Positions 4,536-58,476 of a stretch of DNA of 58,476 nucleotides are shown here, in pieces; within the stretch, counting starts at the first letter, position 1; the number at the start of each line of letters is the position of its first letter. The stretch is from the NCBI RefSeq assembly GCF_003217095.1, contig NZ_QJSR01000011.1, positions 1 to 58,476 of the forward strand. Direction: 5' to 3'. Source of the stretch: Rhizobium sp. PP-CC-3A-592. GTDB lineage: Bacteria; Pseudomonadota; Alphaproteobacteria; Rhizobiales; Rhizobiaceae. Below the pieces are notes generated by a model. The model did not search any database. It was not told where the DNA came from and was given only the letters and a program-made list of their open reading frames with translations. Position numbers and translations under genes: made by a program.

Positions 4536-4557
4536 ATCCCAGTCCTGGACCAGACAT

Positions 4558-36457: not shown

Positions 36458-36730
36458 ATGAGCATACTATACCAATCGTCCACGGCGCTGCATTCACGGC
36501 TGCTCCCGTACGTCGCAGACACCATTACGCGGTTCAGCTATCTCCATCCGACCGTGGAGGTTTTGTTCGACGGGGAGAGCCTGAGGATATTGGGGCCTGA
36601 CAGTGGTGACACTGATCTCTTCCGTGAATTGATGTTCTGTCTGTATCGCGAGAAGGTTCTCGCACAAACCTTGCCGCTGCGGCGGATGCTCATCGAAGGC
36701 GTAACCGGACGTGACCGTCGTTCCGTTTAA
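36458..36730 (+). CDS. hxsD: His-Xaa-Ser system protein HxsD
   Basis: A 90-residue protein whose size and place directly before two radical SAM genes match HxsD, the small partner of the Hxs system. The sequence (ITRFSYLHPTVEVLFDGESL then LFRELMFCLYREKVLAQTLP) resembles the small precursor-recognition partners that go with radical SAM peptide maturases; its biochemical role is not known. The ATG at 36458 has GGGAG 9 bases upstream; the open frame to 36404 is an unneeded extension. The end overlaps hxsB by 20 bases. Confidence 0.8.
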   Translation: MSILYQSSTALHSRLLPYVADTITRFSYLHPTVEVLFDGESLRILGPDSGDTDLFRELMFCLYREKVLAQTLPLRRMLIEGVTGRDRRSV

Positions 36731-39837: not shown

Positions 39838-39921
39838 GATGGGCGGCCGACCCCATGCGTTTTCTGGTTGGCGATCCAGACCGAACGCTTTGGTGACATC
39901 ATCGGTGTTGGTTTTTCATTC

Positions 39922-41781: not shown

Positions 41782-42630
41782 TTAACGATCGTCGCCAATT
41801 TGTCCTTGGGGAGCTATAGGCTTTTTACTTGGCGTCACATCCCGACCGAGAAAGGTTGATGGTGGATAGTGATCCTGCAGGATCCGGCGACCGAATTCCT
41901 CCGGTAAATATTTTGCGATCCGGAACTCAACAAGTAGTTCTTTGAAGCTGCCAGACACTGCGGAAAGTCCATTGTAGCAGCAAAGAGCGACCTCATGACT
42001 CGTCAGCTGGCTGCGCAGAAGGTTTCCGTATCTGTGTTTTTCTTCCAGCTCTAGTTTCAGATCGTTCTTTATCGTCGAAAGTATCGTGTAGAGCAAGCGA
42101 TAGTAAGGTGCGAATGTACTCTCGTATCGGTCATGACAGTTCGTAACATAGATCTCTGCCAGTCTACTGGAAGAAACACGTCCGGCATGCAGCTCTTCAA
42201 CTTCCGCCCAATATCTGATCTCAAACTGCGCGCGTTTGAATGCCTCTGGACCGGTGACAAGTTCGTCATAGTTTTTTTCTTTCGTCCGAGTGCCTCCATC
42301 ATATCCGTCAGTGTATCTGAACTCTACGTCTTCCCGGGCCTCGCGCAAAAGTCGTAGCAATTCATAAAATGTCCTTTCGAACCGCTGGAGGTGTTGATCT
42401 TGTGCAGCTTCGTCAATCTGGTTTTGCTGCTGATGGAGGGTAAAAAGAACAGCGACGAATGCCAGAGCGGAGAACAAGGCGTTCAAGCCACCGAAGGCAT
42501 CCCCCCATTGTCCAATACGATCCGGCGCCCACTCCAACCCAAGAAGTGGAAAAATTGCTGGAGACAGAGCCCAAAGGAGCCAGAGAATGCTCGCGATAAC
42601 AGCCACTCCGTACAAATATTTTCGGCGCAT
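41782..42630 (-). CDS. Putative phage abortive-infection membrane protein
   Basis: A 282-residue protein with two N-terminal transmembrane segments (YGVAVIASILWLLWALSPAI and NALFSALAFVAVLFTLHQQQ) and a helical cytoplasmic part. It shows the family signature QRFERTFYELLRLLREARED, a conserved Tyr/Asp region around FAPYYRLLYTILSTIKNDL, and HEVALCCYNGL. This matches putative phage abortive-infection (Abi) membrane proteins. GAGG lies 9 bases before the ATG. It is the last gene of the minus-strand defence cluster, separated from the NERD gene by about 200 bases with a stem-loop, so it may be a separate unit. Confidence 0.8.
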   Translation of the reverse strand: MRRKYLYGVAVIASILWLLWALSPAIFPLLGLEWAPDRIGQWGDAFGGLNALFSALAFVAVLFTLHQQQNQIDEAAQDQHLQRFERTFYELLRLLREAREDVEFRYTDGYDGGTRTKEKNYDELVTGPEAFKRAQFEIRYWAEVEELHAGRVSSSRLAEIYVTNCHDRYESTFAPYYRLLYTILSTIKNDLKLELEEKHRYGNLLRSQLTSHEVALCCYNGLSAVSGSFKELLVEFRIAKYLPEEFGRRILQDHYPPSTFLGRDVTPSKKPIAPQGQIGDDR

Positions 42631-42770
42631 GCGGACGTACCTCTGAGCAAATATAACTAGCTGCCGGTCGACAGCTCTATTGTGGACAGGTTGCCTATAA
42701 TCGGCTCAGGCTTCTCCACTATCGCCGATCGAACGCCGAACCGTGGATTCCCCCCCGGCTCGTAAATCAT

Positions 42771-42802
42771 GCCCCTCCGTCCGGCTTCACCGGTGAGGGG
42801 GC
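42771..42802 (-). terminator. Strong stem-loop downstream of the NERD-helicase gene
   Basis: GCCCCTC at 42771-42777 pairs with GAGGGGGC at 42795-42802, and an inner CCGG pair strengthens the stem. It lies 27 bases past the stop of the minus-strand NERD-helicase gene, before the Abi-like gene. A TTTT follows only on the plus-strand side, so as a terminator for the minus strand it is not canonical. Confidence 0.4.
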
Positions 42803-42828
42803 GGGCTGCTTTTGGAGGATGCGCCCAC

Positions 42829-44496
42829 TCATTCCTCGATCGTTATGCCGAAACGCCTGAGGTCGTCTTCGGTGCCTGCCACCTCCAGAAGCAGATTTGC
42901 CCGGCTGGTAGCGACGTAGACAAGCTCCGGTTCAAGAATATCTTCGATTCCCAACACGAAGACACAAGGGCGGGAGAGGCCTTTGAATCGTCGCACGGTG
43001 TCAAAGACAATCCGCTCAGGATGGAAACTGTCTGCCCGGCAGGTTTCAAGACCTGCAATGCGAAACAGTCCTGACTCCACATCGCTAGCTCTGCCTGTCA
43101 AAACGGCAATCTGCCCAGGTGTTGCCTGTCCGGAACGCACGAGCTGGAGCACTCGCTCGCTCACACGAGCTATTGCCAGATCCGGTCTTTTGACCTTGAT
43201 TATGCCGACTGCTTCACCTTCAGGTCCCGCGGCGCGGCTCGATTTGCCCAGGTACCACTTCGACATCAGAATGTGAATTTTACGCGTATTGCGAAGGTTC
43301 CGTGTAAGTGAAATTCCCGATTGGGGCAACGCGCGGATGAAGCTGTCGTCCTGAGCGAAAAGTCTTTGGTTGTCGTCGTAAAAAACATAGAATTCACTAT
43401 CGGGGACATCACGCAGGCAAAGTCGAAGGGCATTCAGCCAACTGTCGCGAAAGTCCTGTCCCTCATCCACAATGATTGTATCGAACCCGAGTTCGGGACT
43501 CTCCATGACGGCTTCAATCAGCGCTTCCGGCAACAGTGTATTAAAGTATTCCGGGCCGACATTTTTCGGAAGTGACGTTCCTGACTGTTCAGCAAGTGCA
43601 CGGCAGATCGAGTGAAAACTTGCGACCACCAGGTTAGAGCGATCCGTGCAAACTTCTTTGAGGTAGTTGGCCAAAGGAGCATTGAAGCATGTCAAAAGTG
43701 TCCGTCGACCGGCTGCGGATGACCGGAGAGCCTTCTCAATGGCCAAAACAGTTTTTCCACTTCCCGCGCCGCCGGAAATTGTCATCTCGCGATTGTCTTC
43801 AAGTGAATCCAGAAGCCACGCTTGCTCGGCTGTAAGCCGCTCGATCATCAGAGCGTCCTCTGCGAGGCTTGTACCAATGTGGGCGCGCAGCTCAAAGTGG
43901 CCGGTGACAAGTTCATCAAGCGCCTGCATGCCGTCAAGGCCAAGCGGTTGCTCCCGTACGTCTCCGCCATCTTTCATGCGGTCGACAAGCCACTTTCCCA
44001 GAGTATCCATGTCATCGCCAAATGCTATGATCTCCAGCGGGCCATCCGGTCCAAGTGCGCGCGCCGGTTTGGCGCTGCCCGGAAGAACTGCGGCATGGCG
44101 GGCCCGGATAAATCGTTTCCCTAACCGCCTGTTATCATTCAGCCGTTTCAGAAAATGATGCTTGCTGCTCTTTGCCTGAGCTATGGGATTCTTGATCTTG
44201 AACCGAAAACCGTCCCTGTCTGTACTCAGCCACTGCTCATCCTCTTTTCGGCAGCTGACACGCCCTCCTTTAACTTCGATAAAGAGCAGCCCGTGCTGTG
44301 CGTGAGCCAGAATAAAGTCTGCCTCCCCATCATACTCGGCGCCGTCATCATCGGCCTGATGCCAGGACCGCGAATAATAACAGACATAGTCGTCGGGAAC
44401 CTTGTCCCTGATGCGATCGTAGACACGCACTTCCGAAGAACGCTTCGGATCATTCAGCACATTTGGCGGCAAAATTTTGGGATGCATGCGAGCCAT
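42829..44496 (-). CDS. NERD nuclease fused to a UvrD-like helicase
   Basis: A 555-residue two-domain protein. The N-terminal 160 residues form a NERD/PD-(D/E)XK nuclease-like domain with Asp60, Glu74 and Lys76 (GEADFILAHAQHG, FIEVKGG). The rest is an SF1 helicase: Walker A SGGAGSGKTVLA, Walker B DTIIVDEGQDF and the closing LVYVATSRANLLLEV. The domains are in the order seen in several defence-linked proteins. It starts one base after the DrmB stop, so it is in the same transcript. It probably cuts or unwinds foreign DNA; which activity matters is inferred. Confidence 0.88.
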   Translation of the reverse strand: MARMHPKILPPNVLNDPKRSSEVRVYDRIRDKVPDDYVCYYSRSWHQADDDGAEYDGEADFILAHAQHGLLFIEVKGGRVSCRKEDEQWLSTDRDGFRFKIKNPIAQAKSSKHHFLKRLNDNRRLGKRFIRARHAAVLPGSAKPARALGPDGPLEIIAFGDDMDTLGKWLVDRMKDGGDVREQPLGLDGMQALDELVTGHFELRAHIGTSLAEDALMIERLTAEQAWLLDSLEDNREMTISGGAGSGKTVLAIEKALRSSAAGRRTLLTCFNAPLANYLKEVCTDRSNLVVASFHSICRALAEQSGTSLPKNVGPEYFNTLLPEALIEAVMESPELGFDTIIVDEGQDFRDSWLNALRLCLRDVPDSEFYVFYDDNQRLFAQDDSFIRALPQSGISLTRNLRNTRKIHILMSKWYLGKSSRAAGPEGEAVGIIKVKRPDLAIARVSERVLQLVRSGQATPGQIAVLTGRASDVESGLFRIAGLETCRADSFHPERIVFDTVRRFKGLSRPCVFVLGIEDILEPELVYVATSRANLLLEVAGTEDDLRRFGITIEE

Positions 44497-44497
44497 T

Positions 44498-46324
44498 TCA
44501 GTTCCCGTTTTCCAGAAGTTTGCGGAAGAAGCCGAGGGAGGGGTTCTGCGGTGTGCCTACAAGCATACCGCGGTCGAGATGCCGGTTGAAATGCTCGCAT
44601 GAAGTCTCCGGAACAAACGTGCAGCAGTGACATGCCGCAGAGCCGGATCCTTCTGACAAGGATAAAATGCCGGTGCTGCAAAGTGGATCGGAGGAGCACC
44701 ACTCCATCTCGTGAAGTGCAGCAATGAGGATCGGCGCCAGCTCGTCTGCCCGACCCTTGCGCGAAAGGCCACCCAGCGTCCCGTCAGAATCCGGAGCCGA
44801 CGTGTAGAGCAGGAATCCGCACATGCCGTTCTCCCCCGTCGATACATAAAGGCGTTCACGAATGGATGCGGTCGAATATCCGCTGTCCAGAGAAAGGCGC
44901 TCGGCTAAAGCATGCGCTGTGGTATGGACCAGGAGAAATCGAGGTGAAATATCCATGGGGAAGGGCCGCTCCGATCCGTTGTGTTCTTCCCAGGATCTTT
45001 TGGCTGCGGCATGTGCAACCGCGGCACGAGTTTTGACCGCCTCGTCATTCTCCCACTCTCTGACGCTGTCTGACGCGAAATTGATGAAGATGCCTTCTCC
45101 TCTGACCTCGATTGCGGGAAGCCAGTTAAGTTTCTCCCGCGATAAAGGTGCGATCCTGGCGTTGCGATCTTCAGATTCTACCGGGCTCAGGCGTGTGAAC
45201 CCCCTTAGCGCGCGCACCTCTCGCAGCCTGTCAACCGACACAAGATTCGAGAGAAAGTGCTGAAGTTGGACGGGTATCTTCTGAGGGCTGATTTTGAACT
45301 CTGGAAATTCCTCGTCACGCGGACTGCCGGAGCAAAGCATCATGTGCTCGTTCAGCCGAAGGTCAGCCGAATCGCTCGCCAGCACAGTGAGAAGGGCCTT
45401 GATCCTGGCGGTGAGTTGATCCGCTGTCACAGATTGATCGGGCCAGATCGGATGTATTCGCTGTCGCACATAGCGAGGCAACTGTTCAGGGTCGTCGAGT
45501 TCCGTTAAATCTCCCCAGAACTCTTCCAGCTGCTCACGGAAAGAACCCCCGAAAGGAGGTACATCGAGTGCAGATGCAATAACCGGAAAGTAAGCGTTGG
45601 ACGCGCCTCTTTGTATGGCGACCGGTTCGTTTGTACATTCGCAACCTTCGCTCTTCAGCCAGGGCTGAAGCCCATCACAGCGGATCTTCATGGTCTTGAG
45701 GATTCCGGGGCTCAGTGCGCCGTCAAGATCTCTTTCCGCCATGCACTCTGTGCAGTGTACCCTCAGGCCTTTCAGACCAGATCCTTCACCTTTGAGTTTC
45801 AGGGGCTTCTTGCGTGTGCAGCCCTCTGAATGCCGCGGCCAGGACAGCCACGGAAAATCCTGAAGATGTCCATCGAGGCAGGTAACGACAAATCTGACAG
45901 GGACCACAAATACGCTCTTCGCACGTCTACCCCGACCCGTGCTGCAGACAGGGCAGAAAAGTTCTGGCTTATCGGTCTCGTTGCCCCACGAGCGGCTGCG
46001 CTGCAGCAAGTCGCATTTCGGGCATACATGCCAGTCGGGAAATCTGTAGGCCGGTAGCAGGCGGTCACGTTTGATGTTGCCGAAGCTCTCCTGTCCCACG
46101 GGAGGGAGCCTGAACCCGCGAACACCCAGTCGAGATTGGAGTGGCTCATGGACAATGCGCTGGTCGTTCAGCAATCCTTGTCTTGCCGAAAGCTGATCCC
46201 ACGCTTCCAGTCCCGCGGCAACGACCGAAAGCGGCGCTCCGGTGTCGCCACGGAAGTCAATAATGGCGCCGGGACCGTTACCTGACAGAACCTGGCTACG
46301 CCGTATCTTTCCGATCGGTTTCAT
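44498..46324 (-). CDS. drmB: DrmB, DUF1998-family DISARM protein
   Basis: A 608-residue DrmB-like protein. Zinc-binding Cys pairs are visible near the N-terminus (WHVCPKCDLLQRS, LFCPVC) and in the C-terminal DUF1998 region (CSSDPLC, ACHCCTFVPETSCEHFNRHL). It starts MKPIGKIRRSQVLSGNGPGA, a typical DrmB opening. DrmA and DrmB form the core of DISARM and sense or handle unmodified foreign DNA. Its ATG overlaps the drmA stop as ATGA. Confidence 0.88.
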   Translation of the reverse strand: MKPIGKIRRSQVLSGNGPGAIIDFRGDTGAPLSVVAAGLEAWDQLSARQGLLNDQRIVHEPLQSRLGVRGFRLPPVGQESFGNIKRDRLLPAYRFPDWHVCPKCDLLQRSRSWGNETDKPELFCPVCSTGRGRRAKSVFVVPVRFVVTCLDGHLQDFPWLSWPRHSEGCTRKKPLKLKGEGSGLKGLRVHCTECMAERDLDGALSPGILKTMKIRCDGLQPWLKSEGCECTNEPVAIQRGASNAYFPVIASALDVPPFGGSFREQLEEFWGDLTELDDPEQLPRYVRQRIHPIWPDQSVTADQLTARIKALLTVLASDSADLRLNEHMMLCSGSPRDEEFPEFKISPQKIPVQLQHFLSNLVSVDRLREVRALRGFTRLSPVESEDRNARIAPLSREKLNWLPAIEVRGEGIFINFASDSVREWENDEAVKTRAAVAHAAAKRSWEEHNGSERPFPMDISPRFLLVHTTAHALAERLSLDSGYSTASIRERLYVSTGENGMCGFLLYTSAPDSDGTLGGLSRKGRADELAPILIAALHEMEWCSSDPLCSTGILSLSEGSGSAACHCCTFVPETSCEHFNRHLDRGMLVGTPQNPSLGFFRKLLENGN

Positions 46325-49300
46325 CGTTTTTCCTCTCTGCTGCGCGGATGCTCCAGCAAAACGAACGGGGTGGATGCCTCAACGGAGCGAAGGCTGTTCG
46401 GTGTCGGCTTCTGGCCTTTATATCGGCCCCTGTTGCCGCGAGCCGCCGCAGTTTCGGCCGACGTAAGCAAAGCGACGTCGAAGTCACTCCAGTAAGTCTT
46501 CAGGCCCTGGAAATCGAACCAGCCATCCAGAAAATCATTGAGCTGCTTTCTCGCTGACACGGCTTCACCGGGATCAATTCTTTCCACGCGTTGAACAATG
46601 CGTTCAAGGAGAGCTTCAGCCTCGTTCTGGTGATCCTCGATCGCTCCTGGATTAGCCATTCCTGCGATCAGATGGCGGACAAGTGCGACAAACGGTGCAT
46701 GCAGCGCCCTGTCCCTTGCACGGGGAGCGAAGGGCGTGACACTTGTTGCTTCGACTTCCCGATACAGGCTCCCGTGCCAGCTGCCAAATGTCTCGTACCG
46801 GCTCCGGTCCCGTGACTTCGCAGCGTTGAACAGGGTGACGACCAGCCCGGGCCAGCGCTTGTCTCGCCCGACACGGCTTGTAGCCTGAATGTATTCGGCG
46901 ATCGTTTTTGGTTGTCCATTGACGAGCATCAGGCCGAGGCGTGAAACGTCCATACCGACGGATATCATGTTGCTCGCCAGTACGATGTCTACGTGTTCCT
47001 CATGCCGCCAACTACGCTCAAGGTTCTTGAGATATTTTGGAATTTCGATTGATCTGACCCTGCTGGTGAGCTCAATCTGATTGTCGATCAGGCGTTCGCT
47101 CTCACCTGATCGACGACCGGCGTAATCCCCGATACTGCGGGTGACGTCGTCCCGCATAAGTACGAGGGCGCCACCCAGCTCACGCAGGGAGTTGAAGTAA
47201 TTGATGAGCGTCCAGTACCCATCGCGAACCTGATCAGGAATTCCCTGATCAGTTGCAGCCTGCAGGAGGGAGGCTGAAACGGCCTGCTGGGTGAATTTTG
47301 CAGACCGACCGACTGTGCTGATACCGACATAACGTCGTCCGGGAAGGGATTTGTCCTCAACAGCAAAGCCCGAGTCACTATAGTCCAGACCGGGAGGCGG
47401 GAACTGGAATGACGACCTGTCGAAAAGGGCGCGTATCTGCTGGGAGGCCCGCCTGATCGTCGCCGTTGAACCTATCACTTTCGCACGATGCCCCTCTGAC
47501 GTACGGCAGAGTTCGTCAACCGCGGTCTCGTAGAGGCCGGCAAGGCTTCCCAACGGGCCTGAAATCAGATGAAGTTCGTCCTGGATGATGAGATCCGGTG
47601 GAGAGGCGGATGTTCCGATCCCGAAGAGCCTGCCGGTTTCCTGATTGCGGGTAATCTGCGCATACTTGTCGACTGTTCCGATCACCAGCGTTGGCTGGCG
47701 ATTATAGACATCTTCATCAACGGTCCAGACCGGAAGTCGGTCCATACCGGAGGAGACAATGCATTTTGAGGTCAGGCATCGCACCTCCACACATCTGCGA
47801 TCGGGAGCGATCCTCCAGTCAAGAGTTTCACGGCAGCATGGGCAAGCGCGAAGTTGTGCCGGGGAGTTCTCGCTTTCTGACGAAAGCGCCACCTCTGCGT
47901 CCTTGACGAAATTCGGAGTGGCACCCTGACCTACCCACAGGCCGAGCGAAATCGGAGCGTCGGATGCAAAATATGAAGGATGCTGCGCAGCGCCGGATTC
48001 TGCCAGGTTCTTCCGGATCAATTCGCAGGCGATGATGAGTGCCGCGGCCCGCTCGAACTGCTGTATCGTGAGAAGGCGAAGCGTGTATCGCATAAAGGTT
48101 GTAACACCCCCACCCGCGGGGTCACCTGACGCCCGAAGCCTTCGAAGGAAGATAGTGAAAGCTGTCAGCAGGAGATATGCTTCTGTTTTGCCACCGCCGG
48201 TGGGAAACCACAGGAGATCCATAGTGTCGCGATCGTCATCGTCAGGTCGGGCGATCGAAGAAATACAAAGAAGGGCAAAGCCCAGCTGGAACGGCCGCCA
48301 TATCAATCCGGACGAGCTGGCATCGGGGCGCCAGGAGTATTGCAGCGCCATTGCGGCATTCGCCATCCTGAACGCTTCCAGAGCATTCCTGTCAGTCTGA
48401 ACAAGCTCGATACCGGCCCGCATACGGGCTTCTGCCGCGCGGCAGGTGCGGACGTGCAGGTCACCTTGTCCAGTGAGATTTGCAGGCAGGTCGCTGACCT
48501 GTTTTTCAGCATCCGTTATCCAGTTGCTATAGGCATCAACGAATGTCGTCAGTCCTGTTACCAGATTTTCCTGCCCTGTTCCTGCCAGATGGGACGCAGA
48601 GAGAATGTCCCTTGCAGCACCGGTGTGGAAATTGCTGGCACCGCTCGCGCTGACGACATGAACCGTGGCTTCGGGAAACCAACTGCTCGCGACCCAACCG
48701 ACAGTTTCCTCAAGTGGCGCGTCCCATATTGCCGAGCAAGTATGGCCTACCGCCCATTGCTTTGTCCCACGATAGAGCAAAGCTGAGCTCGCCTTGTCCT
48801 CGTCGTTCTCGCTGGATGCTCCTGCGGGCGCGGGTTTAGGCACAAAGCGGCAATCGGCTTCACAGAACACCGTTATTTCCACTTGAAAAAGCGCTGCCTT
48901 TTCGTTTGCAGACCGGCTTGTCTTCTCCGCGGCGCCCGCGTCGTTGCTGATGGCCAGCGTTACGAGCATCACAGATTGCCATTGCGCGATCCGGGCGTGC
49001 AGTGTCACTCCGGGCTGCCCCTTGTCCGCCAAGGGTATTCCGGGGAAGCCCGGTTGCGACGCAGCAATTAGGTCGAGAAGGACCTCCGCGGATCTGGGGT
49101 CTCGCTTCCAGCTCTGGCTTTTACGACCTCCTGCCTGACTGTCAGCCTCTTCAGATTCGTGCTCTAGGTAGCGGGCACCCTCAACTCTTACCCTCAGGAT
49201 GGGATTTCCATCCACCGGCTCCACTGCAAATGAAAGGCCGGCTGTGCTGGGACGAAATGTAGACGCGGCCTTGACGCCGTCCAGTGCAGTCCCGTTGACT

Positions 49301-49482: not shown

Positions 49483-49501
49483 AATTGTAGCCTCCTCGTA
49501 C

Positions 49502-51889
49502 TTATCGTGGAATTCTGGCAAAACCGCCCAGCAAGGGCATCAGCGCCAGGGATGGCGGCCTTGTCGCTGATCCCTTCACCACGACAGTTGTAGCCCCTGT
49601 GACTGAAACGCCCGACAATACCGGCAGCTCAGACCCCTCTGGAGCGTGGATTATCTCCCGTAATACATCCGTAAATTGCTTTCCGAGAATGCCGATAGGC
49701 TTTTCATCACCGGGCAGACGAATCATCAACTGGTCGGCGCCGGATGGGACTGCCTCGGCTGTCGAAACGGAGGTCGCCGCGCGCCAGACGGCGTCGATCA
49801 TTTCTTGCGCGGAGCTAAAGCAGTCGAAACTGCTAAACCTGGTCCAGTCGATCAGGTCTCCCTCAAGTCCGATTTCCATCTCGCGATAGTCTCGCCGTGC
49901 TCGCCAGTGACGTTCGGGTGTGCCGGCTGTGTAAAAACTGCCGTGAGGCGCCCAGCCGGTCCGAAGCTCATCGCTGGCACGTGTGGCTGCAACATAGAGG
50001 GTACGTGCCTCCTCAGACCAATTGACGCCTTCTTTCCGGCGTTCAGCATTCATGAGTATGAGGACGCGATCTGACTGCCGCCCCTTGATAGCGTGGATAG
50101 TCGAGAGAAGGGGCCCGGACGTGCCCTCGTGATCACTGATGAGGTCTGATGGCGGATTTTCGAGTCCCTCGGCAATCCGACCAACGGCAACCTCGCTGCT
50201 GCCTGCTCCATCAAGGTCCCGCAAAATCTCCCAGCATTCGTCGGGAGTTCGGGAAATCGAGGTTCGGTAACCATCAAACAGCTGGCCGAAGGCTTCTCTG
50301 GTCAGTCTCGTGTCCGGATCCAATCCACCAAGGCAGACACCAATCCATGGCTCAATCCGCAACGGCCTGTCACTGAGGCGAATGCGGAACGGTCTCCTCT
50401 TCATACGCATCGCTTCAGCGACTTCCAGCAGACTGGAGCGGTATCGAGTAAGGATGAAACCGCGGGTGGTCGATGGATGTCCGGTGAAATCACGGATTCC
50501 TGTTTCCGACGCGCTCGCATCGATAAGATCACGGAGCTCGAAATATTCGTCTCGTGTTACTGGATCTTTATCCCGGAGAAAATCGCGGGCGGATCGGAAA
50601 AGCAAGCGAAGGCTGTCTGTTCTGGCGCGGTGGTCCCGGGTTATCTGCATAGGACGGAATTGCGGTAGCCTTTGGACTTGTTGAAGGAGTGTGTCATTTT
50701 CGCTTCCGGGACTCTGGTATCCATAGATCGCTTGGGCGAAATCGCCGAATACGGTGATGCCGCACGCCGGGTGGACCTCACTGATCAGCGCCTCACAAAA
50801 CGTCCTGCGGGATCCGACGAGGTCTTGGGCCTCATCGATGATGACGTGTTCGAGTGCATCAACCAGATTGATCACTAGAGGATCGCGTGTCCGCAGAAGT
50901 CTCGTCGCAGCCTGGATAGTTGCTTCATGGCTGCCAGCCGTTTTTGCTCCGGCTGCGAGGACAATGCGTGCCGCATATGAATCAAAAGTATGCAACTGTA
51001 CCATGGCGACGCCCGGAGCGGACGAAAGGCGCTCCTTGATTCTCTCCCCCAGTTCCGCAACGGCAATGCGGGTAAAACTCAGCAGGACAATCCGGGAGGG
51101 CGCCGCTCCGTCCTCGACCAGCCGCACCACACGTTCGGCTGCAGTATTTGTCTTTCCGGCACCCGGCCCGGCTTCCACGACGATACGCTCACCACCGCCC
51201 ACCGCTGCCACAAGCTGCTGCTCCAGGTCCGGAACGATTTCGCTGCCTGCTTGATCGTCATACGGAACCCCTAACCAGTCCCTCAGAAAGGCAGCATTGT
51301 CGTTTCCGATTGACCATGACCCCGACCGGGGATCGAAGCTCCCGCAGAGAGAGAGTATAATCGCCGCATTAGCCGGGATCCCGTCGCTGGACGAGTGTTG
51401 GCCATTCGCATGCAGGAAACGAGGCGCGAGCAATTCTGTTGTGCTTCGCCACGCTTCCAGTAGATCGAGAAGTGTCCCGGTAGGCTGTCCTGGGACAGTC
51501 GGGAAAAGCTCATCAGGGCCGCGATCGATAGTCTGGCCATGGTCGCCAAGGCCTATAACCCTGCCATCGGGGAGTGCGATGCGCCGGAATGGGACGGCGA
51601 CAAGGACCGCTTCGCCATGCACCATGCCGCTACCGATATCCCCGGTGTCGGAAAGAATATCGATAACCGAATCGATCACTGGTCGGCCTGCCGCAAGATC
51701 CTTCTTGGCGAGAAAACCAGAAATCCATTCGCGGACAGAATATCTGCTCACCCCACGCCGGGTCCCGACCATGGTACGGATTAGATCGGCAACGACGCCA
51801 CGATCCAGCTCGTCGTCCCGATAAATCCTCAATAATCTCGCTGGCGAATATGTTTCTGATTTCAATGGCTTTACTCGACAACTACACAT
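49502..51889 (-). CDS. UvrD/REP-type helicase with an N-terminal extension
   Basis: A 795-residue SF1 helicase. Walker A reads VEAGPGAGKTNTAAERV, Walker B HVIIDEAQDL, then FGDFAQAIYGYQ, STIHAIKGRQSDRVLI and LYVAATRASDEL, which give the full UvrD set. The first 230 residues are an extension with no clear domain (NAAFLRDWLGVPYDD near its end). The C-terminal 170 residues after the helicase are also unassigned. It is the first gene of the drmA-drmB transcript, ending 19 bases before drmA, so it probably works with them. The ribosome-binding site is weak. The start could be later. Confidence 0.87.
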   Translation of the reverse strand: MCSCRVKPLKSETYSPARLLRIYRDDELDRGVVADLIRTMVGTRRGVSRYSVREWISGFLAKKDLAAGRPVIDSVIDILSDTGDIGSGMVHGEAVLVAVPFRRIALPDGRVIGLGDHGQTIDRGPDELFPTVPGQPTGTLLDLLEAWRSTTELLAPRFLHANGQHSSSDGIPANAAIILSLCGSFDPRSGSWSIGNDNAAFLRDWLGVPYDDQAGSEIVPDLEQQLVAAVGGGERIVVEAGPGAGKTNTAAERVVRLVEDGAAPSRIVLLSFTRIAVAELGERIKERLSSAPGVAMVQLHTFDSYAARIVLAAGAKTAGSHEATIQAATRLLRTRDPLVINLVDALEHVIIDEAQDLVGSRRTFCEALISEVHPACGITVFGDFAQAIYGYQSPGSENDTLLQQVQRLPQFRPMQITRDHRARTDSLRLLFRSARDFLRDKDPVTRDEYFELRDLIDASASETGIRDFTGHPSTTRGFILTRYRSSLLEVAEAMRMKRRPFRIRLSDRPLRIEPWIGVCLGGLDPDTRLTREAFGQLFDGYRTSISRTPDECWEILRDLDGAGSSEVAVGRIAEGLENPPSDLISDHEGTSGPLLSTIHAIKGRQSDRVLILMNAERRKEGVNWSEEARTLYVAATRASDELRTGWAPHGSFYTAGTPERHWRARRDYREMEIGLEGDLIDWTRFSSFDCFSSAQEMIDAVWRAATSVSTAEAVPSGADQLMIRLPGDEKPIGILGKQFTDVLREIIHAPEGSELPVLSGVSVTGATTVVVKGSATRPPSLALMPLLGGFARIPR

Positions 51890-51897
51890 TGCAAGGA

Positions 51898-51909
51898 TTG
51901 GATGTCCAA
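51898..51909. promoter_or_regulatory. Dyad TTGGA-TG-TCCAA between divergent defence operons
   Basis: A perfect 12-base dyad lies in the 100-base divergent gap, nearer the UvrD-like gene. This is the only obvious candidate operator in the gap that could couple the two operons. No regulator gene is nearby. Confidence 0.3.
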
Positions 51910-51989
51910 GTGATTCGCGTCAATGCGATTTCAATCGGGAGATGAACAAATGTCTCTCTGTGCCAGTCTGATGTCGTTGGAAGCTTTCT

Positions 51990-54953
51990 ATGCCGGTATC
52001 TATGCACTTGAAGGATTGTCATCAGGCGTTGGGCGATCGATTCCAACAACTTGCGTCCGCCCGCTCAGGCCTACCGGTTTTCGCAATCGAGCACGGCCTC
52101 GAGCCTGCGGCTCTCGCAGTGATCCGTCGGCAGGTTGCCAGGCAGCTGGAAATCGATGGGGATCTGGGTGGCGTAAGCTGGGGTATCTGCTACCTTCCCC
52201 TCATCATTATCGCTTCCGAGGTGGGATACAGATATCGGGGAACCGGGACTGATTTCTGGCCATTGCTTGCCCAAGACCTCAATCTTGATTCCAGATCGGT
52301 GTCCCCGGTCCATCTTTCGCGTCTCTTCGACTTGTCCCACCGGACATTTGGTCTGGCCCGACCCGGAGACAGCGCATGGGAACAGCATTTCCCCCACATC
52401 GCGTGGCCGATAGGAAACGCGGCAGTTCCACTGGAGGTGCAAGGACCTCTCGCACACGCCCTGAGGGCTGCTGTGCGCGCCGGCGTTTCTTATGACAACA
52501 AGGACAGCCTCCTCAATTACATCCGCAATGTAGCGTCGGGACAGTCAGGCCGCAGGTTTGAGAACTGGTTGCAGCGAAGTGATCTGTCGGGGGAGGTGAT
52601 GACACGATTGCTCGATCCTGCGGCGGACGGCTGGCTTACCGAAACATTCGTCCGGCGGGTAGATTCGGACGTTCGTCGGGATGTTGAGTCGCGTCGGGCT
52701 ATTGGCGAGGCAAGGCGATTGACCTCGCGGCGATCCGGACGGCAGGCCGATATACCAGGTTCGAGATTTTTGATTTTTCTCGACGCCGACCTCGTCACCA
52801 GGATTTCAGTGCGCGGGCCAGTCCTGACTGCTGACCTCCGTGATCAGGTGATTGCGACCCTGCGGACCCAAAGAGATGTCCTTGGTAGCACTACGTCCCC
52901 GGAGATCATCCAGCTTCGGCTTTTTCTGGCAGGTGGCGAGCTGGATCTAGGCACGACTTCCCAATGGCCCGAGGCGCCGCTGCGCCGTGGCGACGGCATC
53001 ACGGTTACGTCGTCCCAAGCAGCACAGTTCCTTGAGAGTCTGCAGCCCGCGGAAACAGAATTCTTCCGGATGGAAGCTGACGGGCGATCAGCACTTGCAC
53101 TCCTGCCCGGTGAACAGGTCGCGCAGAACTCAAACGTCGTGAGGATTAAAAGCGAAGGCGAGGGTTTGTCGGTTATCCAGAGGCTCGACGCATCCTTGGC
53201 CAGAGACGTCGAGATCCTGCGAAAGCACGGTTACCCGGTCCGCGACGGCCGTTTGTTGACGTTATCCGGGTTGCCGATGCCAGGCACCGGCGGAAAGTTT
53301 GCAACAGATTTTCCGGTATTGGCGGTGGTGGGATTTGATGGAGCGGCGCTGGTACTTGATCAGATAACGGCTGCGCAGGGCCACCTAAAAATCGCTGGAT
53401 GCGACTGGGCGATATTCAAGCCCGGAGCCGGCGAGCATACTATAGGACCGCAGGGTTACGATGTTGCCTCGCACGTACCGTTCGAGATGGTCGATCCGCC
53501 TGACATTGAAGCGGCAAGTGTGTCGATCCACCCGGTGGGTGCTACGCTGACCGACTTCGTGGAAGGAACGATGGAAATCCGGATCAGGGCGCCTCTGCCG
53601 CTTGAGAACGTTCGTGTCCAGATCAGACTGGTCATGGCGGGTGAAGAGGATCTTGTTACCGAAAGCACTGTAGACCGGCTGCCCGCCCATCTTGCCGGAC
53701 GCACGCCATTGCTGCAGGTCCTGAAGACGTCCCTCGCAAAGCGAGGGCTAGCAGCGTCGGCGGCGGCCCGGCTGCAGGTCACTGTGAAAGGACTGGTGGC
53801 GGAACAGTTCACGCTTCTGCCCAGACCGCAACTTTTCGTCTACGATGAGCGTCGCCGGTCATGGACCGCCGGGCAGGGCAATGAATCGGAACTTGCCTCC
53901 CGGGTGGCGACGCTCTCAAATCTCCTGCCTGCAAAATCGACTGCCCCGAGTGCCGAATGTACCCTTGTTCTCCCTGACAGCGACGCTTGGGGAGCCCTTG
54001 GTGCTGGTCGGGTCGTGCGTGAGAGTACTCACTTTCGCCTCGGGCAAGGTACAATTGAGCAGCCTTCACCTCCATCCACAGTAAGGGAGGCTCTTTCAAG
54101 AGATGGCGTTCCCGGTCTGAACGAAATGACAGGCGCCTATCTGGCATGGCGCCTGGCAGCGGGCGCTGATCCAATTGCGAACTGGCAACAGCATAAAGGT
54201 GCTGACAGCCTCGAGGCTGGTCTGGTAGCTCTTCTTTGCGGGGACAACTGGCGCCGAAACGAGGACGGCCTGAACCTTTCAGTCCTTTCGCCGTCCGGTG
54301 CATTCCGTATCAGTGCGCAACGTTTCGGGCTGTTGTCCGGCGACGGTCTGCCACCGGTCGTCCGCTCCGTTGATGCAGACTATCTGGCAAGACGGATCGC
54401 ATTCCGGCTCCATCAGACAGTTCCGGATCATGCGACCGCTTTGGCTGAATGGACTGAGGACCTCGGCGGCGAGCTCGATCTGGCTGTGATCGAGGCATAC
54501 GAGGATCTGCGGAGTCATATGCTGCAGGAAGGCCGCGACACATTCGAGGAGGTCGATATGCAACGGCCGGCAAGCAGGTGGTTGCGCGCACTCGAGGGCG
54601 CGCGGGATATCCCTCATCTGGCCATGTTCCGACGGTTTATCCTTCCGGAAGGCAGATGGCAGGCGCTTTCCGCCTTCCCCTATGAAATAACAACCGAGGA
54701 CGACATCGTTGATCTGCTCGACAGATACCATGTTGACGCTTTCCGTCGACAGGGTCTGCGCTGGATCGGACGACCGGAATTGCGTGCAATGCTCGAACTG
54801 TGGATCTCACCACGTGCCCTGCTCGAGGCGGGGGAATGGCAGCGATACCTGGCAAAGAGCCTTTCTGACATCCAGACCGCGAGAGCGGTGCGTTACGCCG
54901 CACTAAGGCGAAAGCTGTCGCGGCTGGATTTTCCTGAAGAAAGCCTGGCGTGA
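51990..54953 (+). CDS. Unassigned 987-residue protein of the defence island
   Basis: I cannot place this protein in a family. It starts MPVSMHLKDCHQALGDRFQQ after GGAAG and shows no Walker, nuclease or methyltransferase motif. The N-terminal third is helical (VSYDNKDSLLNYIRNVASGQ). The middle is beta-rich with hydrophobic strands (SRFLIFLDADLVTRISVRGP; PVLAVVGFDGAALVLDQITA), suggesting barrel or beta-sandwich domains. The C-terminal third is helical with Trp-rich stretches (ELRAMLELWISPRALLEAGE). Its stop overlaps the start of the SNF2 helicase gene. Tight linkage makes it a likely structural or recognition partner of the helicase. Confidence 0.75.
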   Translation: MPVSMHLKDCHQALGDRFQQLASARSGLPVFAIEHGLEPAALAVIRRQVARQLEIDGDLGGVSWGICYLPLIIIASEVGYRYRGTGTDFWPLLAQDLNLDSRSVSPVHLSRLFDLSHRTFGLARPGDSAWEQHFPHIAWPIGNAAVPLEVQGPLAHALRAAVRAGVSYDNKDSLLNYIRNVASGQSGRRFENWLQRSDLSGEVMTRLLDPAADGWLTETFVRRVDSDVRRDVESRRAIGEARRLTSRRSGRQADIPGSRFLIFLDADLVTRISVRGPVLTADLRDQVIATLRTQRDVLGSTTSPEIIQLRLFLAGGELDLGTTSQWPEAPLRRGDGITVTSSQAAQFLESLQPAETEFFRMEADGRSALALLPGEQVAQNSNVVRIKSEGEGLSVIQRLDASLARDVEILRKHGYPVRDGRLLTLSGLPMPGTGGKFATDFPVLAVVGFDGAALVLDQITAAQGHLKIAGCDWAIFKPGAGEHTIGPQGYDVASHVPFEMVDPPDIEAASVSIHPVGATLTDFVEGTMEIRIRAPLPLENVRVQIRLVMAGEEDLVTESTVDRLPAHLAGRTPLLQVLKTSLAKRGLAASAAARLQVTVKGLVAEQFTLLPRPQLFVYDERRRSWTAGQGNESELASRVATLSNLLPAKSTAPSAECTLVLPDSDAWGALGAGRVVRESTHFRLGQGTIEQPSPPSTVREALSRDGVPGLNEMTGAYLAWRLAAGADPIANWQQHKGADSLEAGLVALLCGDNWRRNEDGLNLSVLSPSGAFRISAQRFGLLSGDGLPPVVRSVDADYLARRIAFRLHQTVPDHATALAEWTEDLGGELDLAVIEAYEDLRSHMLQEGRDTFEEVDMQRPASRWLRALEGARDIPHLAMFRRFILPEGRWQALSAFPYEITTEDDIVDLLDRYHVDAFRRQGLRWIGRPELRAMLELWISPRALLEAGEWQRYLAKSLSDIQTARAVRYAALRRKLSRLDFPEESLA

Positions 54954-57871
54954 TGGATCACTACCTGCGTTTTGTAAATTGCATTCAGGCGCTGAGGCGT
55001 CGAACAGAGGCGATGACGATCGCGATGGGAGGAGCGCTGGGTGTTGCCGCTGACCCGCTCCCTCACCAACTTGCGACCGTGCGGCGTGTGCTCTTCGACA
55101 CGGACGTCCGGCATCTTCTTTCTGACGAGGTGGGACTTGGCAAGACTGTCCAAGCCTTGATGATCATCAATGCCCTCAGATGGCAACATCCGAAGCATCG
55201 CACACTTATTATTGCACCTGATAATCTGCTCGCACAATGGCAGGAGGAATGTTGGATTCGCGGCCACGTAATGCCTGCGCTGGCGGGTGTTGCGTCGGAT
55301 GAGGATGCGGAAAAGACCCCTGTTTTGCTGGCCAGACCCCGTGATCTTGTTCGACGTCAGGGCGAGGCGGAACGAACTGTGGAGCTCGATAGCAGTAGGT
55401 TTGATCTGCTTGTCGTCGACGAGCCCCAGACCATGCCGCGGGAAATTGTGCAGACGATTTCTCAGGCTGCTGACAGTTTCCGCCAGGTTCTTGTCCTCTC
55501 TGCAACTCCGAGACTCGGCGATGCAGTCTGGCGTGATCTCATCATGCGCATGGTCGAGCCGGCGGCGGCATTCAGGGCGCGCTTCGAGGATCGCGATATC
55601 GCAGAGGTACTGGCTGATCGTGAGATTCAGGCGCACTCCGAGAAGCAAGCGGATACTTCCGGAAAATATCTACAGTTCGCGGCGACACGAAGAGTTGTAA
55701 GGAATGGCAGGGATGGCTGGGGGGCTTACCTTCCGGTAAGACGGAACACGGAGATCAAGATCCAGCCGCTTGCGGCGGAGCGTGAACGTCATTCGATTGC
55801 TGCAGAATTGCTCCGAAATATTGAGCGCAGTGCAGATATGCAAGGTCGCCCCTGGACTTCTGTGCGCTCTTTGCAAAGAAGTGCGAGGGGGGCGAGGGAC
55901 GTTCTGGCTGAAATCGCCGGCCAGGGTGGAGAACTGGCTGAAAAGGCCGAGCACGCTCGCGCCGCATCACTTGAAGATCCCGGTGACAGCAGACTGGAAG
56001 CGCTGCTGGATCTTTTGTCAGAAGAGTGGGAAAAAGACGCGACCCAAGCCCTCATCATTGTTTGTGGAGACAATCCTACAATCGACATGCTGAGAACTGC
56101 ATTGCCGCGATACTTCCCTGATCTGGCGGATAGCATCGGAATTCTTAGGCGGCCGGCCACCGCGGAAATTGAGGCCGTTACCAATCTGCGCGAGGTCCAG
56201 GAAACACTTGCGCCCTTTCTGGAAGGCACTGCCCGGCTGCTACTGGTTGGCGACTGGGTACAGGCGGGGCTCAACCTGCATCACGCGGCGAGTCGGATCG
56301 TCTTCTATTCGATGCCATGGGAAATGGAGAGTATCGATCAGCTGATTGGTCGTGTTGACCGCTTGGGATCGGTATCCGGGCGTGAGAGGCGTCAACGTCA
56401 GGTTCGTATATGGCGTCTTGTCCATGATGGCGCCCAGGAGGCGGCCATCGCTGACGTTGCGTCGCGGCTGGGGGTCTTCGATGCGCCATTGCCGCCGCTT
56501 TCCGACGAGGAACGTAACGGCGTGTATCAATTGCTGTCACAAGCTGCCATCTCCGGTGCTGCGCCCGACGGGCTCGCCAAGATAAATCCTGAGGGCACCG
56601 GACTTTTTACATCCCTTCGGGATCTGGATCCGTTTACCTCGCAGAATGCGATTGCCCATTTTGAATCTTGGCAAAAACTGCCTGTTGTTCAACCGGCAAT
56701 GCTGAAGCGAAAGGATCAGGGGCAAATTGAAACCTCTCAGGGTGCGATGCGCTCTTGGCTGGAAACAATTACCAGATCAGGCGATTTCGAAGTTGGCAGC
56801 AAGCCGGACAGACAGGACCCCGATTTCTGGTTCGGCACGCTATGGTATTATCGCACAGCAGGGATAGGCCGCCCAAGCTACATACCTTTCACGCTTCCCG
56901 GGACGGGAGCCGAAAACTGGATGTCAGATCACCAGCCCTACATCATCGACCGTGCTCGAATCCCAACCCCACCGCGAAAAACGGTGGTAACAGATTCCGG
57001 GGAAGATTCCGGGCGCCCGCTCCATTTCCTTGATCATGGCAGCATCCTTCACGATACCTTGGTCGAAGGATACATTTCGGAAGGCCGCAAAACGTTCGGG
57101 CAGACTCAACCCGTTCTTCATTCAACGGTGACACTGCCTGAAGGGCATCCATCAAAAGGGCAACCACCGACAATAGTGACCGTTGCAGACTTTGATCCGT
57201 TTCCTGATGAAATGCTTCCACAACTCTGGTCTTCTGCCGCCAGAGAAATTCTCGCTAGTGCTGTCTCAGATGTTCAGCGCATTGGATTGGGTGCTGATCG
57301 ATTGTCACTACAATCTATGGCGCGCGCTGTTCAGCGCTGGGTTCGTTTACATGTACCAGCACAACTTTGCAGGATGGCGTCATCCGAAACCGGTGGAAAA
57401 TGGGCAGATGTCCCCGCAGAGAAGATCGACGAAATCCTAGGCCCGTTGGTTTTTGGTCCCAAAATCCTGTGCGCCAAGGGTAGGACACCAGTCCGGCCTG
57501 TCTTGCGGTCCGACGTTGTGAGCGCGGTAAGGCGGAATCAGGCTGAAATGATGGCTAACCGGATCCGGGAGCTAGATAACAGCGCGCGAGCCTCGATTTC
57601 TCCGCTTGTTGCCACAATGCGTTCAAGACTTGCTTTTCATTGGATTGAAGAGTCCCGAAACCGCGAGCTGGCACTTGAACGGAGAAAAAGTGCCGCGGAT
57701 TCCGGACAACTTCGGCTTGGCCAGATTGGTGCGCTGGAACGCTCTCTAGAAATGTCGCGGCTGTGCGGCAAGGAGAGCGCGCATATTCTTGAAAACTACA
57801 TTGTAACAAAACGCACTCCTGATCTCATAAAGCCTTTGAGCATCGTGCTTGCGTTCGCCGAGCTGTCTTGA
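54953..57871 (+). CDS. SNF2/RapA-like helicase with DEPQ motif
   Basis: A 972-residue SF2 helicase of the SNF2/HepA type. Motif I DEVGLGKT is at residues 59-66, motif Ia LIIAPDNLLAQWQEE, motif II DEPQ at 155-158 (usually DEAH or DEAQ), motif III LVLSATPRLGD, and motifs V-VI GLNLHHAASRIVFYSMPWEM then QLIGRVDRLGS. About 400 C-terminal residues have no recognised domain. The ATG at 54953 overlaps the stop of the previous gene (TGATG); the GTG at 54950 is an alternative. It resembles DrmD-like helicases of DISARM class I, but linkage and partner differ. Confidence 0.88.
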   Translation: MDHYLRFVNCIQALRRRTEAMTIAMGGALGVAADPLPHQLATVRRVLFDTDVRHLLSDEVGLGKTVQALMIINALRWQHPKHRTLIIAPDNLLAQWQEECWIRGHVMPALAGVASDEDAEKTPVLLARPRDLVRRQGEAERTVELDSSRFDLLVVDEPQTMPREIVQTISQAADSFRQVLVLSATPRLGDAVWRDLIMRMVEPAAAFRARFEDRDIAEVLADREIQAHSEKQADTSGKYLQFAATRRVVRNGRDGWGAYLPVRRNTEIKIQPLAAERERHSIAAELLRNIERSADMQGRPWTSVRSLQRSARGARDVLAEIAGQGGELAEKAEHARAASLEDPGDSRLEALLDLLSEEWEKDATQALIIVCGDNPTIDMLRTALPRYFPDLADSIGILRRPATAEIEAVTNLREVQETLAPFLEGTARLLLVGDWVQAGLNLHHAASRIVFYSMPWEMESIDQLIGRVDRLGSVSGRERRQRQVRIWRLVHDGAQEAAIADVASRLGVFDAPLPPLSDEERNGVYQLLSQAAISGAAPDGLAKINPEGTGLFTSLRDLDPFTSQNAIAHFESWQKLPVVQPAMLKRKDQGQIETSQGAMRSWLETITRSGDFEVGSKPDRQDPDFWFGTLWYYRTAGIGRPSYIPFTLPGTGAENWMSDHQPYIIDRARIPTPPRKTVVTDSGEDSGRPLHFLDHGSILHDTLVEGYISEGRKTFGQTQPVLHSTVTLPEGHPSKGQPPTIVTVADFDPFPDEMLPQLWSSAAREILASAVSDVQRIGLGADRLSLQSMARAVQRWVRLHVPAQLCRMASSETGGKWADVPAEKIDEILGPLVFGPKILCAKGRTPVRPVLRSDVVSAVRRNQAEMMANRIRELDNSARASISPLVATMRSRLAFHWIEESRNRELALERRKSAADSGQLRLGQIGALERSLEMSRLCGKESAHILENYIVTKRTPDLIKPLSIVLAFAELS

Positions 57872-57968
57872 ACGCGACAGGCCCGGCCCGAAGACTATAG
57901 CCCGCAGTTGAACCCAGGTGCCTGTATCTGCCTGCAAGTGCCGGAGACAAACAGAGGATCGGAAGTGA

Positions 57969-58196
57969 ATGACTACGCCGCGAGCTTGGAGTTTTCTGGT
58001 TGTCGAGGGGACTAGGCAGTATGGTGGGAATGATGGCTACAATGACAGCCCAAGTGAAACCTACCATTATGACACTGATGTGGCGAACCACCTGCAGGTC
58101 GCGGAGGGGGATGTCGCCATAATTCGAACCCGGGACCATGTGAAAGGGGTAGCGGTTATCGAGCAAATCGTCACTGGCGAGGGGAGGAAGGAAAGA
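57969..58196 (+). pseudogene. N-terminal fragment of an HNH-endonuclease-type protein, cut by an IS element
   Basis: The frame begins MTTPRAWSFLVVEGTRQYGG after GGAAG and reads YHYDTDVANHLQVAEGDVAI, typical of the N-terminal domain before HNH nuclease or zinc-finger domains in restriction-like proteins. After about residue 75 (QIVTGEGRKERR) the sequence becomes the left end of an IS256-family element; the last 30 residues to the stop at 58289 are IS-derived. The effector domain is missing, so the gene is probably inactive. Confidence 0.65.
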
Positions 58197-58476
58197 CGGG
58201 AGTGTCAGGAATTTCGTGTACGGGCGTGCATAATGGGTACGAAGGAGATCACCCATGGCACGACGGAAAGAGCCTGTTATTTCGGATAGCATTCTGGACC
58301 AATTATTGGCCGGTTCTGATGCGAAGACAGCTTTCGAGAGCAACGGGCTTCTCGATCAGTTGAAGAAAGCCCTGGCGGAAAGGGCTTTGAACGCAGAGAT
58401 GGATCATCATCTCTCTGGCGAAGCGACTGCCGGCAACAGCCGCAATGGCTACGGCCGCAAGACGGTACTGACGGAT
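58197..58476 (+). mobile_element. Left end of an IS256-family insertion sequence
   Basis: The left end lies near 58190-58200, judged by where the interrupted gene loses its pattern and where GAGTGTCAGGAATTTCGTGT begins, which resembles left ends of rhizobial IS256 elements. The transposase follows. The right end and target duplication are outside the window. Confidence 0.7.
58255..58476 (+). CDS. IS256-family transposase (partial)
   Basis: The first 74 codons of a Mutator-type transposase: MARRKEPVISDSILDQLLAG, then DAKTAFESNGLLDQLKKALA, ERALNAEMDHHLSGE and NSRNGYGRKTVLTD, the usual IS256 N-terminus with the HLSGE and NSRNGY motifs. AAGGAG lies 8 bases before the ATG. The DDE catalytic domain is beyond the right edge. 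Confidence 0.93.
   Translation, partial: MARRKEPVISDSILDQLLAGSDAKTAFESNGLLDQLKKALAERALNAEMDHHLSGEATAGNSRNGYGRKTVLTD

What the first reader, a model, noticed from the sequence alone, without database searches (positions are those of the whole stretch)
41782..58290. DrmA-DrmB core with non-standard partners: a candidate new defence system
Two divergent operons surround a DISARM-like drmA-drmB pair. The minus strand adds a UvrD-type helicase with a long extension and a NERD-nuclease/helicase fusion. The plus strand adds an unassigned 987-residue protein, a SNF2 helicase and a nuclease-like fragment. DISARM as established needs a DNA methyltransferase (class I or II) and usually drmC; none is seen here. 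Five nucleic-acid enzymes in one block without a methylase suggests a different way of telling self from foreign DNA. Similar DrmAB-containing variants may have been described, so novelty is not certain.
Basis: partly seen in the sequence, partly recalled or inferred. Interest (0 to 1): 0.85.

Follow-up and report, generated by a model that had tools for sequence, protein, structure and literature searches.

The report
DISARM-like six-gene defence system with Druantia-like parts
A conserved six-gene bacterial cluster, predicted to block phages, combines the core motor of one known defence family with parts related to another; it usually sits beside a DNA-cytosine methylase, so the methylase thought to be missing lay just past the point where the sequence happened to end.

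Summary
The gene cluster is real. Two tight divergent operons encode NERD-helicase, DrmB, DrmA and UvrD (minus strand) and a 987-residue protein (P6) plus a SNF2 ATPase (plus strand). A P6-profile scan gave 29 loci: P6 is followed by SNF2 in all 29, DrmA-DrmB are present in 24, NERD in 14 of those.

The inference 'no methylase' fails. The window is a whole contig that stops inside an insertion sequence. Contig C20 of the same genome carries the other side (same 8-bp flank) and, about 4 kb on, a C5-cytosine methyltransferase, Vsr and an EcoRII-type enzyme. A C5 methyltransferase lies within about 6 kb in 19 of 24 checkable loci, against 0.3 expected under uniform placement. No DrmC nearby in 14 genomes.

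DrmA forms a clade apart from class 1 DISARM; class 2 was not sampled. P6 is homologous to a protein of Druantia type I-like loci, and the UvrD extension resembles DruD. Best reading: an unnamed DISARM-like class in which cytosine methylation from an exchangeable neighbouring cassette probably spares self DNA and NERD cuts. A new variant of a known kind; no function was tested.

The parts
42829..44496 (-). NERD-nuclease / SF1 helicase fusion, 555 aa (probable effector nuclease)
   Evidence: Pfam NERD 3e-8; PADLOC RTasNERD-Hel 1e-59 and C3a187 'NERD+UvrD' 1e-31; ExK motif in 19 of 19 NERD homologues of at least 480 aa from loci with P6 of at least 800 aa, type B included
44498..46324 (-). DrmB, 608 aa (DUF1998/MZB partner of DrmA)
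   Evidence: PADLOC DrmB 2e-84, Pfam MZB 8e-8, NCBIfam DrmB_fam 485 bits against cut-off 240; PDB 7s9v chain B 9e-84
46321..49482 (-). DrmA, about 1053 aa from the likely ATG at 49482 (the listed TTG ORF reaches 49521)
   Evidence: PADLOC DrmA 1e-209; PDB 7s9v chain A 2e-143; Walker A and QDE(L/F)H in 26 of 26 homologues examined; the M at 49482 is invariant in 5 aligned
49502..51889 (-). UvrD/GajB-like SF1 helicase, 795 aa, with about 220-aa DruD-like N-terminal extension
   Evidence: Pfam UvrD 3e-23; Foldseek to UvrD-DNA structures 6e-16 on an AlphaFold2 model, pLDDT 83.5; N-terminal profile against the DruD-like profile of type B loci hhalign 97.1%, E 6e-11
51890..51989 (.). 100-bp divergent intergenic region between the two operons (probable shared promoter region)
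   Evidence: gene coordinates; inference
51990..54953 (+). P6, 987-aa protein of unknown fold: helical N and C parts, beta-rich middle
   Evidence: no family match; AlphaFold2 pLDDT 82.7, pTM 0.51; homologous to the 932-960-aa protein of Druantia type I-like loci, hhalign E 1.7e-38
54950..57871 (+). SNF2/RapA-like ATPase, 973 aa (DpdE/BrxH/DrmD-like), overlapping P6 by 4 bp
   Evidence: Pfam SNF2 1e-10; PADLOC DpdE 5e-29, BrxH 9e-25, DrmD 2e-17; follows P6 in 29 of 29 loci
57969..58196 (+). N-terminal part of an IS-interrupted nuclease gene (HNH_2 part on contig C20); not conserved with the system
   Evidence: no homologue of either part in the other annotated loci
58197..58476 (+). Left end of an IS (33-bp terminal repeat, start of a Mutator-type transposase at 58255), cut by the contig end
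   Evidence: Pfam Transposase_mut 1.6e-5

Best explanation
This is an anti-phage system of the DISARM-like (DrmAB) branch of YprA helicases, a class not individually named in what I could search. Inferred mechanism: DrmA-DrmB is a translocating helicase held inactive until it loads on DNA ends or single-stranded DNA of an invader, and 5-methylcytosine in host DNA damps it. The mark is supplied by a C5 methyltransferase encoded in an exchangeable neighbouring cassette (EcoRII type, MvaI type, MORC-like type, or a DrmMII-like methyltransferase, mostly with Vsr). UvrD, whose extension resembles Druantia DruD, and the SNF2 ATPase extend unwinding and remodelling, P6 acts as scaffold or sensor, and the NERD domain cuts the unwound DNA. 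Shown here: gene content, conservation, motif conservation, homologies, linkage to the C5 methyltransferase. Inferred: phage defence, methylation sensing, nuclease action, and the roles of P6, UvrD and SNF2.
For: Conserved divergent order. DrmA and DrmB align with the solved DrmAB complex 7s9v, for which Bravo et al. report a trigger loop, 5'-overhang loading and reduced ATPase on 5mC DNA (PMC9142583, passages). C5 methyltransferase within about 6 kb in 19 of 24 checkable type-A loci against 0.32 expected, 17 of 22 against 0.15 without plasmid records, in five kinds of cassette. One of them (L019, the Amorphus locus L025) has PADLOC DrmMII as best match, 275 bits. The P6-less relatives L085, L086 and L069 also carry C5 methyltransferase and Vsr beside UvrD-DrmA-DrmB-NERD. 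Motifs kept: DrmA Walker A and DExH 26 of 26, UvrD DEAQD 27 of 27, NERD ExK 19 of 19, DrmB cysteine pattern 25 of 25.
Against: No function was tested. Five of 24 checkable loci have no C5 methyltransferase within 6 kb (L028, L029, L041, L043, L049). Four searched loci that pair P6-SNF2 with DruE have none adjacent. The methyltransferase is outside the two core operons in the loci seen and often belongs to a complete R-M cassette that could act alone. Adenine methyltransferases were not searched for by profile, so a preference for C5 over other methylation is not tested; L028 has a type I HsdR gene about 2 kb from SNF2, and L086 what I read as a type III R-M pair. Nine of the 24 DrmA loci lack NERD, so it cannot be the only effector. 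The DrmA residue proposed as methylation sensor lies beyond the region that aligned. My strict patterns failed in part: SNF2 Walker A 22 of 30, UvrD Walker A 23 of 27 and motif VI 15 of 27, NERD D motif 17 of 19.
Confidence: 0.6

Rival explanations
1. The six genes tell self from foreign by DNA structure alone; the neighbouring C5 methyltransferases belong to independent restriction-modification systems that merely share defence islands.
For: The methyltransferases sit in different, apparently self-sufficient cassettes on either side, one resembling the MORC-SNF2-EcoRII-like operons of Iyer et al. (PMC2292703, passages); 5 of 24 loci lack one nearby; type B loci 0 of 4. DrmAB of Serratia already selects by DNA structure (PMC9142583, passages).
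Against: Linkage is about 60-fold over a uniform-position expectation, and DrmAB ATPase is reported to fall on 5mC DNA. A uniform expectation overstates the excess because defence genes cluster.
Confidence: 0.3
2. It is a Druantia system with DrmAB in place of DruE.
For: P6 is homologous to the 932-960-aa protein between DruA and DruD in Druantia I-like loci; UvrD extension resembles DruD; in type B loci P6-SNF2-NERD occur with DruE and DruD-like genes.
Against: No DruE or DruA homologue in the 24 DrmA loci; DrmA and DrmB belong to the DISARM families.
Confidence: 0.15
3. A DNA repair or plasmid-maintenance helicase cluster, not a defence system.
For: Several helicase and nuclease proteins; homologues on large rhizobial plasmids.
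Against: Sporadic distribution (P6 family in 6 of 151 relatives, the window's own genome included, three of the six being Druantia-like loci), recurrent company of R-M genes, DrmAB core.
Confidence: 0.05

Closest known systems
DISARM class 1 and class 2
   Same: DrmA and DrmB; a SNF2 ATPase distantly like DrmD; C5 methyltransferase nearby (DrmMII-like in some loci); a Microvirga class 1 locus also starts with a cytosine methyltransferase and vsr
   Different: No DrmC, no DrmMI; DrmE not seen among the PADLOC matches shown; adds UvrD, NERD-helicase and P6; DrmA clade separate from class 1 (class 2 not sampled); methyltransferase outside the core operons
Druantia type I
   Same: P6 homologue and DruD-like domain; YprA-family motor
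   Different: Motor is split DrmA/DrmB, not DruE; no DruA; UvrD, NERD and SNF2 added
ARMADA type II (Bell et al. 2025 preprint, PMC12458937; outline, parts 1-3 of 8 and passages seen)
   Same: YprA motor plus SNF2/RapA-like helicase plus GajB/UvrD-like helicase
   Different: Methyltransferase is C5 and outside the operons, not PglX-like; UvrD extension is DruD-like, RelE-like not seen; motor is the DISARM type; P6 and NERD are additional
UvrD-DrmA-DrmB-NERD with C5 methyltransferase and vsr but no P6 (Rhizobium rhizogenes L085, Shinella L086, G539 L069)
   Same: Same four-gene core in the same DrmA clade; C5 methyltransferase adjacent
   Different: No P6-SNF2; in L085 one co-directional array with an ATPase-like protein and a DUF2357/PD-(D/E)XK protein

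Membership tests
DISARM | DrmA helicase | tested here: met
   PADLOC 1e-209, PDB 7s9v_A 2e-143; NCBIfam DrmAS 918.9 bits, just under the 950 cut-off
DISARM | DrmB (DUF1998) | tested here: met
   NCBIfam 485 bits over cut-off 240; PDB 7s9v_B 9e-84
DISARM | DrmC phospholipase-D-like protein | tested here: not met
   PF13091 searched in 14 genomes (of the 33 handles given): matches in 13, none within about 10 kb of the system; no DrmC homologue in the fetched stretches with P6
DISARM | DNA methyltransferase as part of the system | tested here: inconclusive
   C5 methyltransferase within about 6 kb in 19 of 24 checkable loci, but outside the core operons
DISARM class 1 | DrmD and DrmMI | tested here: not met
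   SNF2 gives 60.6 bits to PADLOC DrmD and 72 against a 610 cut-off in NCBIfam; no DrmMI homologue in the 27 P6-bearing DrmA loci
DISARM class 2 | DrmE with DrmMII | tested here: inconclusive
   DrmMII-like enzyme in some loci; no DrmE among the PADLOC matches shown, but lists for UvrD and SNF2 were capped at 25 of 43 and 25 of 34
Druantia type I | DruE fused YprA helicase | tested here: not met
   No DruE1 match at E 1e-100 in the own genome; motor is split DrmA/DrmB; no DruE homologue in the 24 DrmA loci
Druantia type I | DruD | tested here: inconclusive
   Only as a domain of UvrD: hhalign 97.1% to type B DruD-like (itself 91.2% to Druantia-locus DruD), 70% directly; three controls 0.1-0.2%
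ARMADA | PglX-like methyltransferase in the operon | tested here: not met
   No methyltransferase match among the core genes; P6 has no match to any family
ARMADA | BrxA-like insert and C-terminal Vsr nuclease in the YprA protein | not tested
   DrmA and DrmB structures were not predicted

The most novel reading that the evidence does not exclude
A DISARM-Druantia chimera that does not own its self-mark: DrmAB with Druantia-related sensor parts (P6, DruD-like domain) reads cytosine methylation deposited by whichever C5 methyltransferase cassette has been captured next to it, and so acts as a second layer that fires on unmethylated or newly replicated invader DNA that escaped the R-M enzyme.
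Probability: 0.3. Interest if true: 0.72.

Novelty: new variant of a known kind. Interest (0 to 1): 0.52.

Why it matters
It gives a defined, recurrent gene set to what may be one of the 'uncharacterized DISARM-like' classes that Bell et al. (PMC12458937, figure legend passage) mention without describing in the text I saw. It links DISARM and Druantia through shared partner proteins rather than only through the motor. It makes an open question testable, namely what DrmAB uses as self-mark, because five kinds of C5-methyltransferase cassette occur beside the same motor.

Tried and rejected
Rejected: 'no methylase in the island' (contig break inside an IS). Rejected: the 57969-58289 ORF as a system nuclease (interrupted by the IS; no homologue of either part in the other annotated loci). 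Rejected: P6 as an enzyme of known fold. No Pfam, PADLOC or NCBIfam match for the window protein, no PDB sequence match, and no Foldseek match at E 0.001 or better in PDB or BFVD; the best hits are weak Ig/FN3-like beta domains. No P6 relative in phage records at E 1e-5.

Led nowhere: DruE1 in 299 phylum genomes at E 1e-100 gave 0, and a distant DNA search of E. coli genomes gave none, so canonical DruB and DruC could not be fetched or compared. The VIA-align library was not available. Ofir et al. (PMC5739279) is not held, so the CCWGG statement rests on a passage of a review (PMC11676413). No confirmed class 2 DISARM locus was put in the DrmA tree. Adenine methyltransferases were not searched for by profile.

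In print: searches with DrmA/DrmB/UvrD/NERD, DISARM/Druantia combinations, DISARM-like and class III wordings, DISARM/Vsr/Dcm and DrmA/DrmB/SNF2/Rhizobium listed no paper whose title or shown abstract start describes this gene set. Seen: outline, parts 1-3 of 8 and passages of PMC12458937; passages only of PMC9142583, PMC11676413, PMC10270631, PMC11090510, PMC7251935 and PMC2292703; no supplements.

Full report
What is there. The window is a complete contig (C11, 58,476 bp) of a 5.1-Mb genome in 27 contigs. On the minus strand lie NERD-helicase, DrmB, DrmA and UvrD with overlaps or gaps of at most about 20 bases; 100 bp away on the plus strand starts P6 (987 aa), which SNF2 overlaps by 4 bp. 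Family searches support every label except P6, which has no match. DrmA and DrmB align with chains A and B of the solved DISARM complex 7s9v. The alignment begins at residue 136 of chain A, so the EVE-like N-terminal domain described for class 1 DrmA (PMC12458937) has no aligned counterpart here. The place of the trigger loop (176-232 in Serratia) is shorter here but still acidic (my reading).

It recurs. A profile of P6 found 29 loci in the genome collection. P6 is followed by SNF2 in 29 of 29. DrmA, DrmB and UvrD are present in 24; one more (L031) has UvrD but no DrmA before the contig ends about 2.4 kb away, one is cut by a contig end (L032), and three carry DruE instead (L048, L050, L051). 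Of the 24, 14 have NERD, 7 have instead a SNF2-plus-144-aa block, L041 and L049 have neither NERD nor that block (L049 has a SNF2b-like piece and a 341-aa gene of no clear family), and L034 is cut. Rhizobium plasmids (76% in P6) and Azospirillum carry the same order; the Azospirillum SNF2 runs across the record start. Among 151 relatives of the window's genome 6 have the P6 family, the window included, and three of the six are Druantia-like loci.

The methylase. The window ends inside an insertion sequence: a 33-bp terminal repeat at 58197-58229 and the start of a Mutator-type transposase (the name IS256 family is recalled). The IS-end pattern, with up to 2 mismatches, occurs four times in the genome, on C10, C11, C20 and C23. 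Of these only C11 and C20 share the flanking 8 bp, one on each side, as a target duplication would. Past the IS, C20 carries the HNH_2 part of the interrupted gene and then dcm (3931-5217), vsr and an EcoRII-C enzyme. So the window's island has a C5 methyltransferase about 4 kb beyond SNF2, not counting the IS. The contig order is inferred, not read through.

Linkage. PF00145 was searched in 32 genomes or records behind the loci; L039 was not held. Of 28 type-A loci (L031, without DrmA, counted in), four are cut by contig ends too close to judge (L032, L034, L035, L037). Of the remaining 24, 19 have a C5 methyltransferase within about 6 kb and 5 do not (L028; L029 and L043 at about 23 kb; L041; L049). 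With gene counts entered by hand, 0.32 would be expected, or 0.15 against 17 of 22 without the two plasmid records; this assumes uniform placement, and clustering of defence genes would raise it. The four searched type B loci have none adjacent. Adenine methyltransferases were not searched for by profile.

Cassettes. The 19 comprise EcoRII type (window, L031, L036, L046), MvaI/BcnI type (Rhizobium, L027, L033), a dcm-vsr-GHKL ATPase-HNH-SNF2-EcoRII-N operon (L038, L040, L042, L044, L045, L047), a second methyltransferase subfamily with vsr seen in three of five (L023, L024, L025, L026, L030), and a dcm set with an ATPase-like protein (weak AAA matches), a DUF2357 protein and vsr (Azospirillum). 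The GHKL operon resembles the MORC operons of Iyer et al. (PMC2292703, passages). One enzyme of the second subfamily, 542 aa, has PADLOC DrmMII as its best match. EcoRII and MvaI recognise CCWGG and BcnI CCSGG (recalled); a review states that DISARM modifies CCWGG (PMC11676413, passage). Specificity of the enzymes here was not tested.

Place in the family. A tree of 49 DrmA sequences puts 27 P6-bearing rows and 3 P6-less UvrD rows in one clade (SH-aLRT 99), apart from 9 class 1 DISARM rows (100) and 6 NERD-only rows (97); three distant rows lie outside, and the Tsukamurella row L088 (UvrD, no P6) falls with class 1 and NERD-only at weak support (80) (quick method, several long branches; class labels rest on a DrmMI homologue nearby; no class 2 row). 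Paracoccus JM45 (L035) has a window-like P6-SNF2 next to a Shinella-like DrmA, which points to module exchange. DrmA at E 1e-20 is rare: 9 of 385 class genomes and 15 of 398 phylum genomes, the window's own genome in both.

Druantia link. In type B loci P6-SNF2 face DruD-like, NERD and DruE genes. The UvrD extension matches the type B DruD-like profile (97.1%, E 6e-11) and more weakly the Druantia DruD (70%, E 4e-5); the two DruD profiles match each other (91.2%, E 1e-6); three control comparisons gave 0.1-0.2%. These profiles are shallow. How X relates to canonical DruB and DruC could not be tested.

Structure. AlphaFold2 gives P6 a helical N part (1-250), a beta-rich middle (259-640) and a helical C part (700-977), pLDDT 82.7 but pTM 0.51. 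No fold match reached E 0.001. UvrD matches UvrD/Rep helicases and has an added N-terminal helix-and-strand domain ('winged-helix-like' would be my reading of the secondary structure).

Verdict. The best reading is an unnamed DISARM-like class with Druantia-related partners and an exchangeable C5-methyltransferase neighbour. Defence activity, methylation sensing and the role of every subunit remain inferred.

Noticed in passing
window 41782-42630: putAbiC-type gene (Pfam 1e-16) directly beside the NERD end; no homologue in the other annotated loci.
   Followed up: partly
window 36711-41488: Two adjacent radical-SAM genes followed by a peptidoglycan-binding protein, an unmatched 332-aa ORF and an SH3-domain protein; a possible peptide-modification cluster.
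   Followed up: partly
window 1-149 and L052 10790-10937: The left end of the window matches the right end of contig C20 in inverted orientation (92.6%), so another repeat probably flanks C20.
   Followed up: no
L035 380-9861: Paracoccus JM45 carries two UvrD genes and a DrmAB from another subclade beside a window-like P6-SNF2: a natural chimera.
   Followed up: partly
L067, L068, L070, L071, L079, L081: Another recurrent DrmAB group with a NERD-helicase-like gene; a C5 methyltransferase lies in 5 of the 6 fetched stretches and a large unassigned protein in several; no UvrD or P6 homologue found.
   Followed up: partly
L088 9795-26456: Tsukamurella plasmid: cytosine methyltransferase, 464-aa protein, UvrD, DrmA, DrmB, SNF2 and a large 'restriction endonuclease subunit M' in one array, perhaps the actinobacterial counterpart.
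   Followed up: no
L014 7968-20266: Decayed Druantia I-like locus in Sinorhizobium medicae with IS21 and IS3 elements within it.
   Followed up: no
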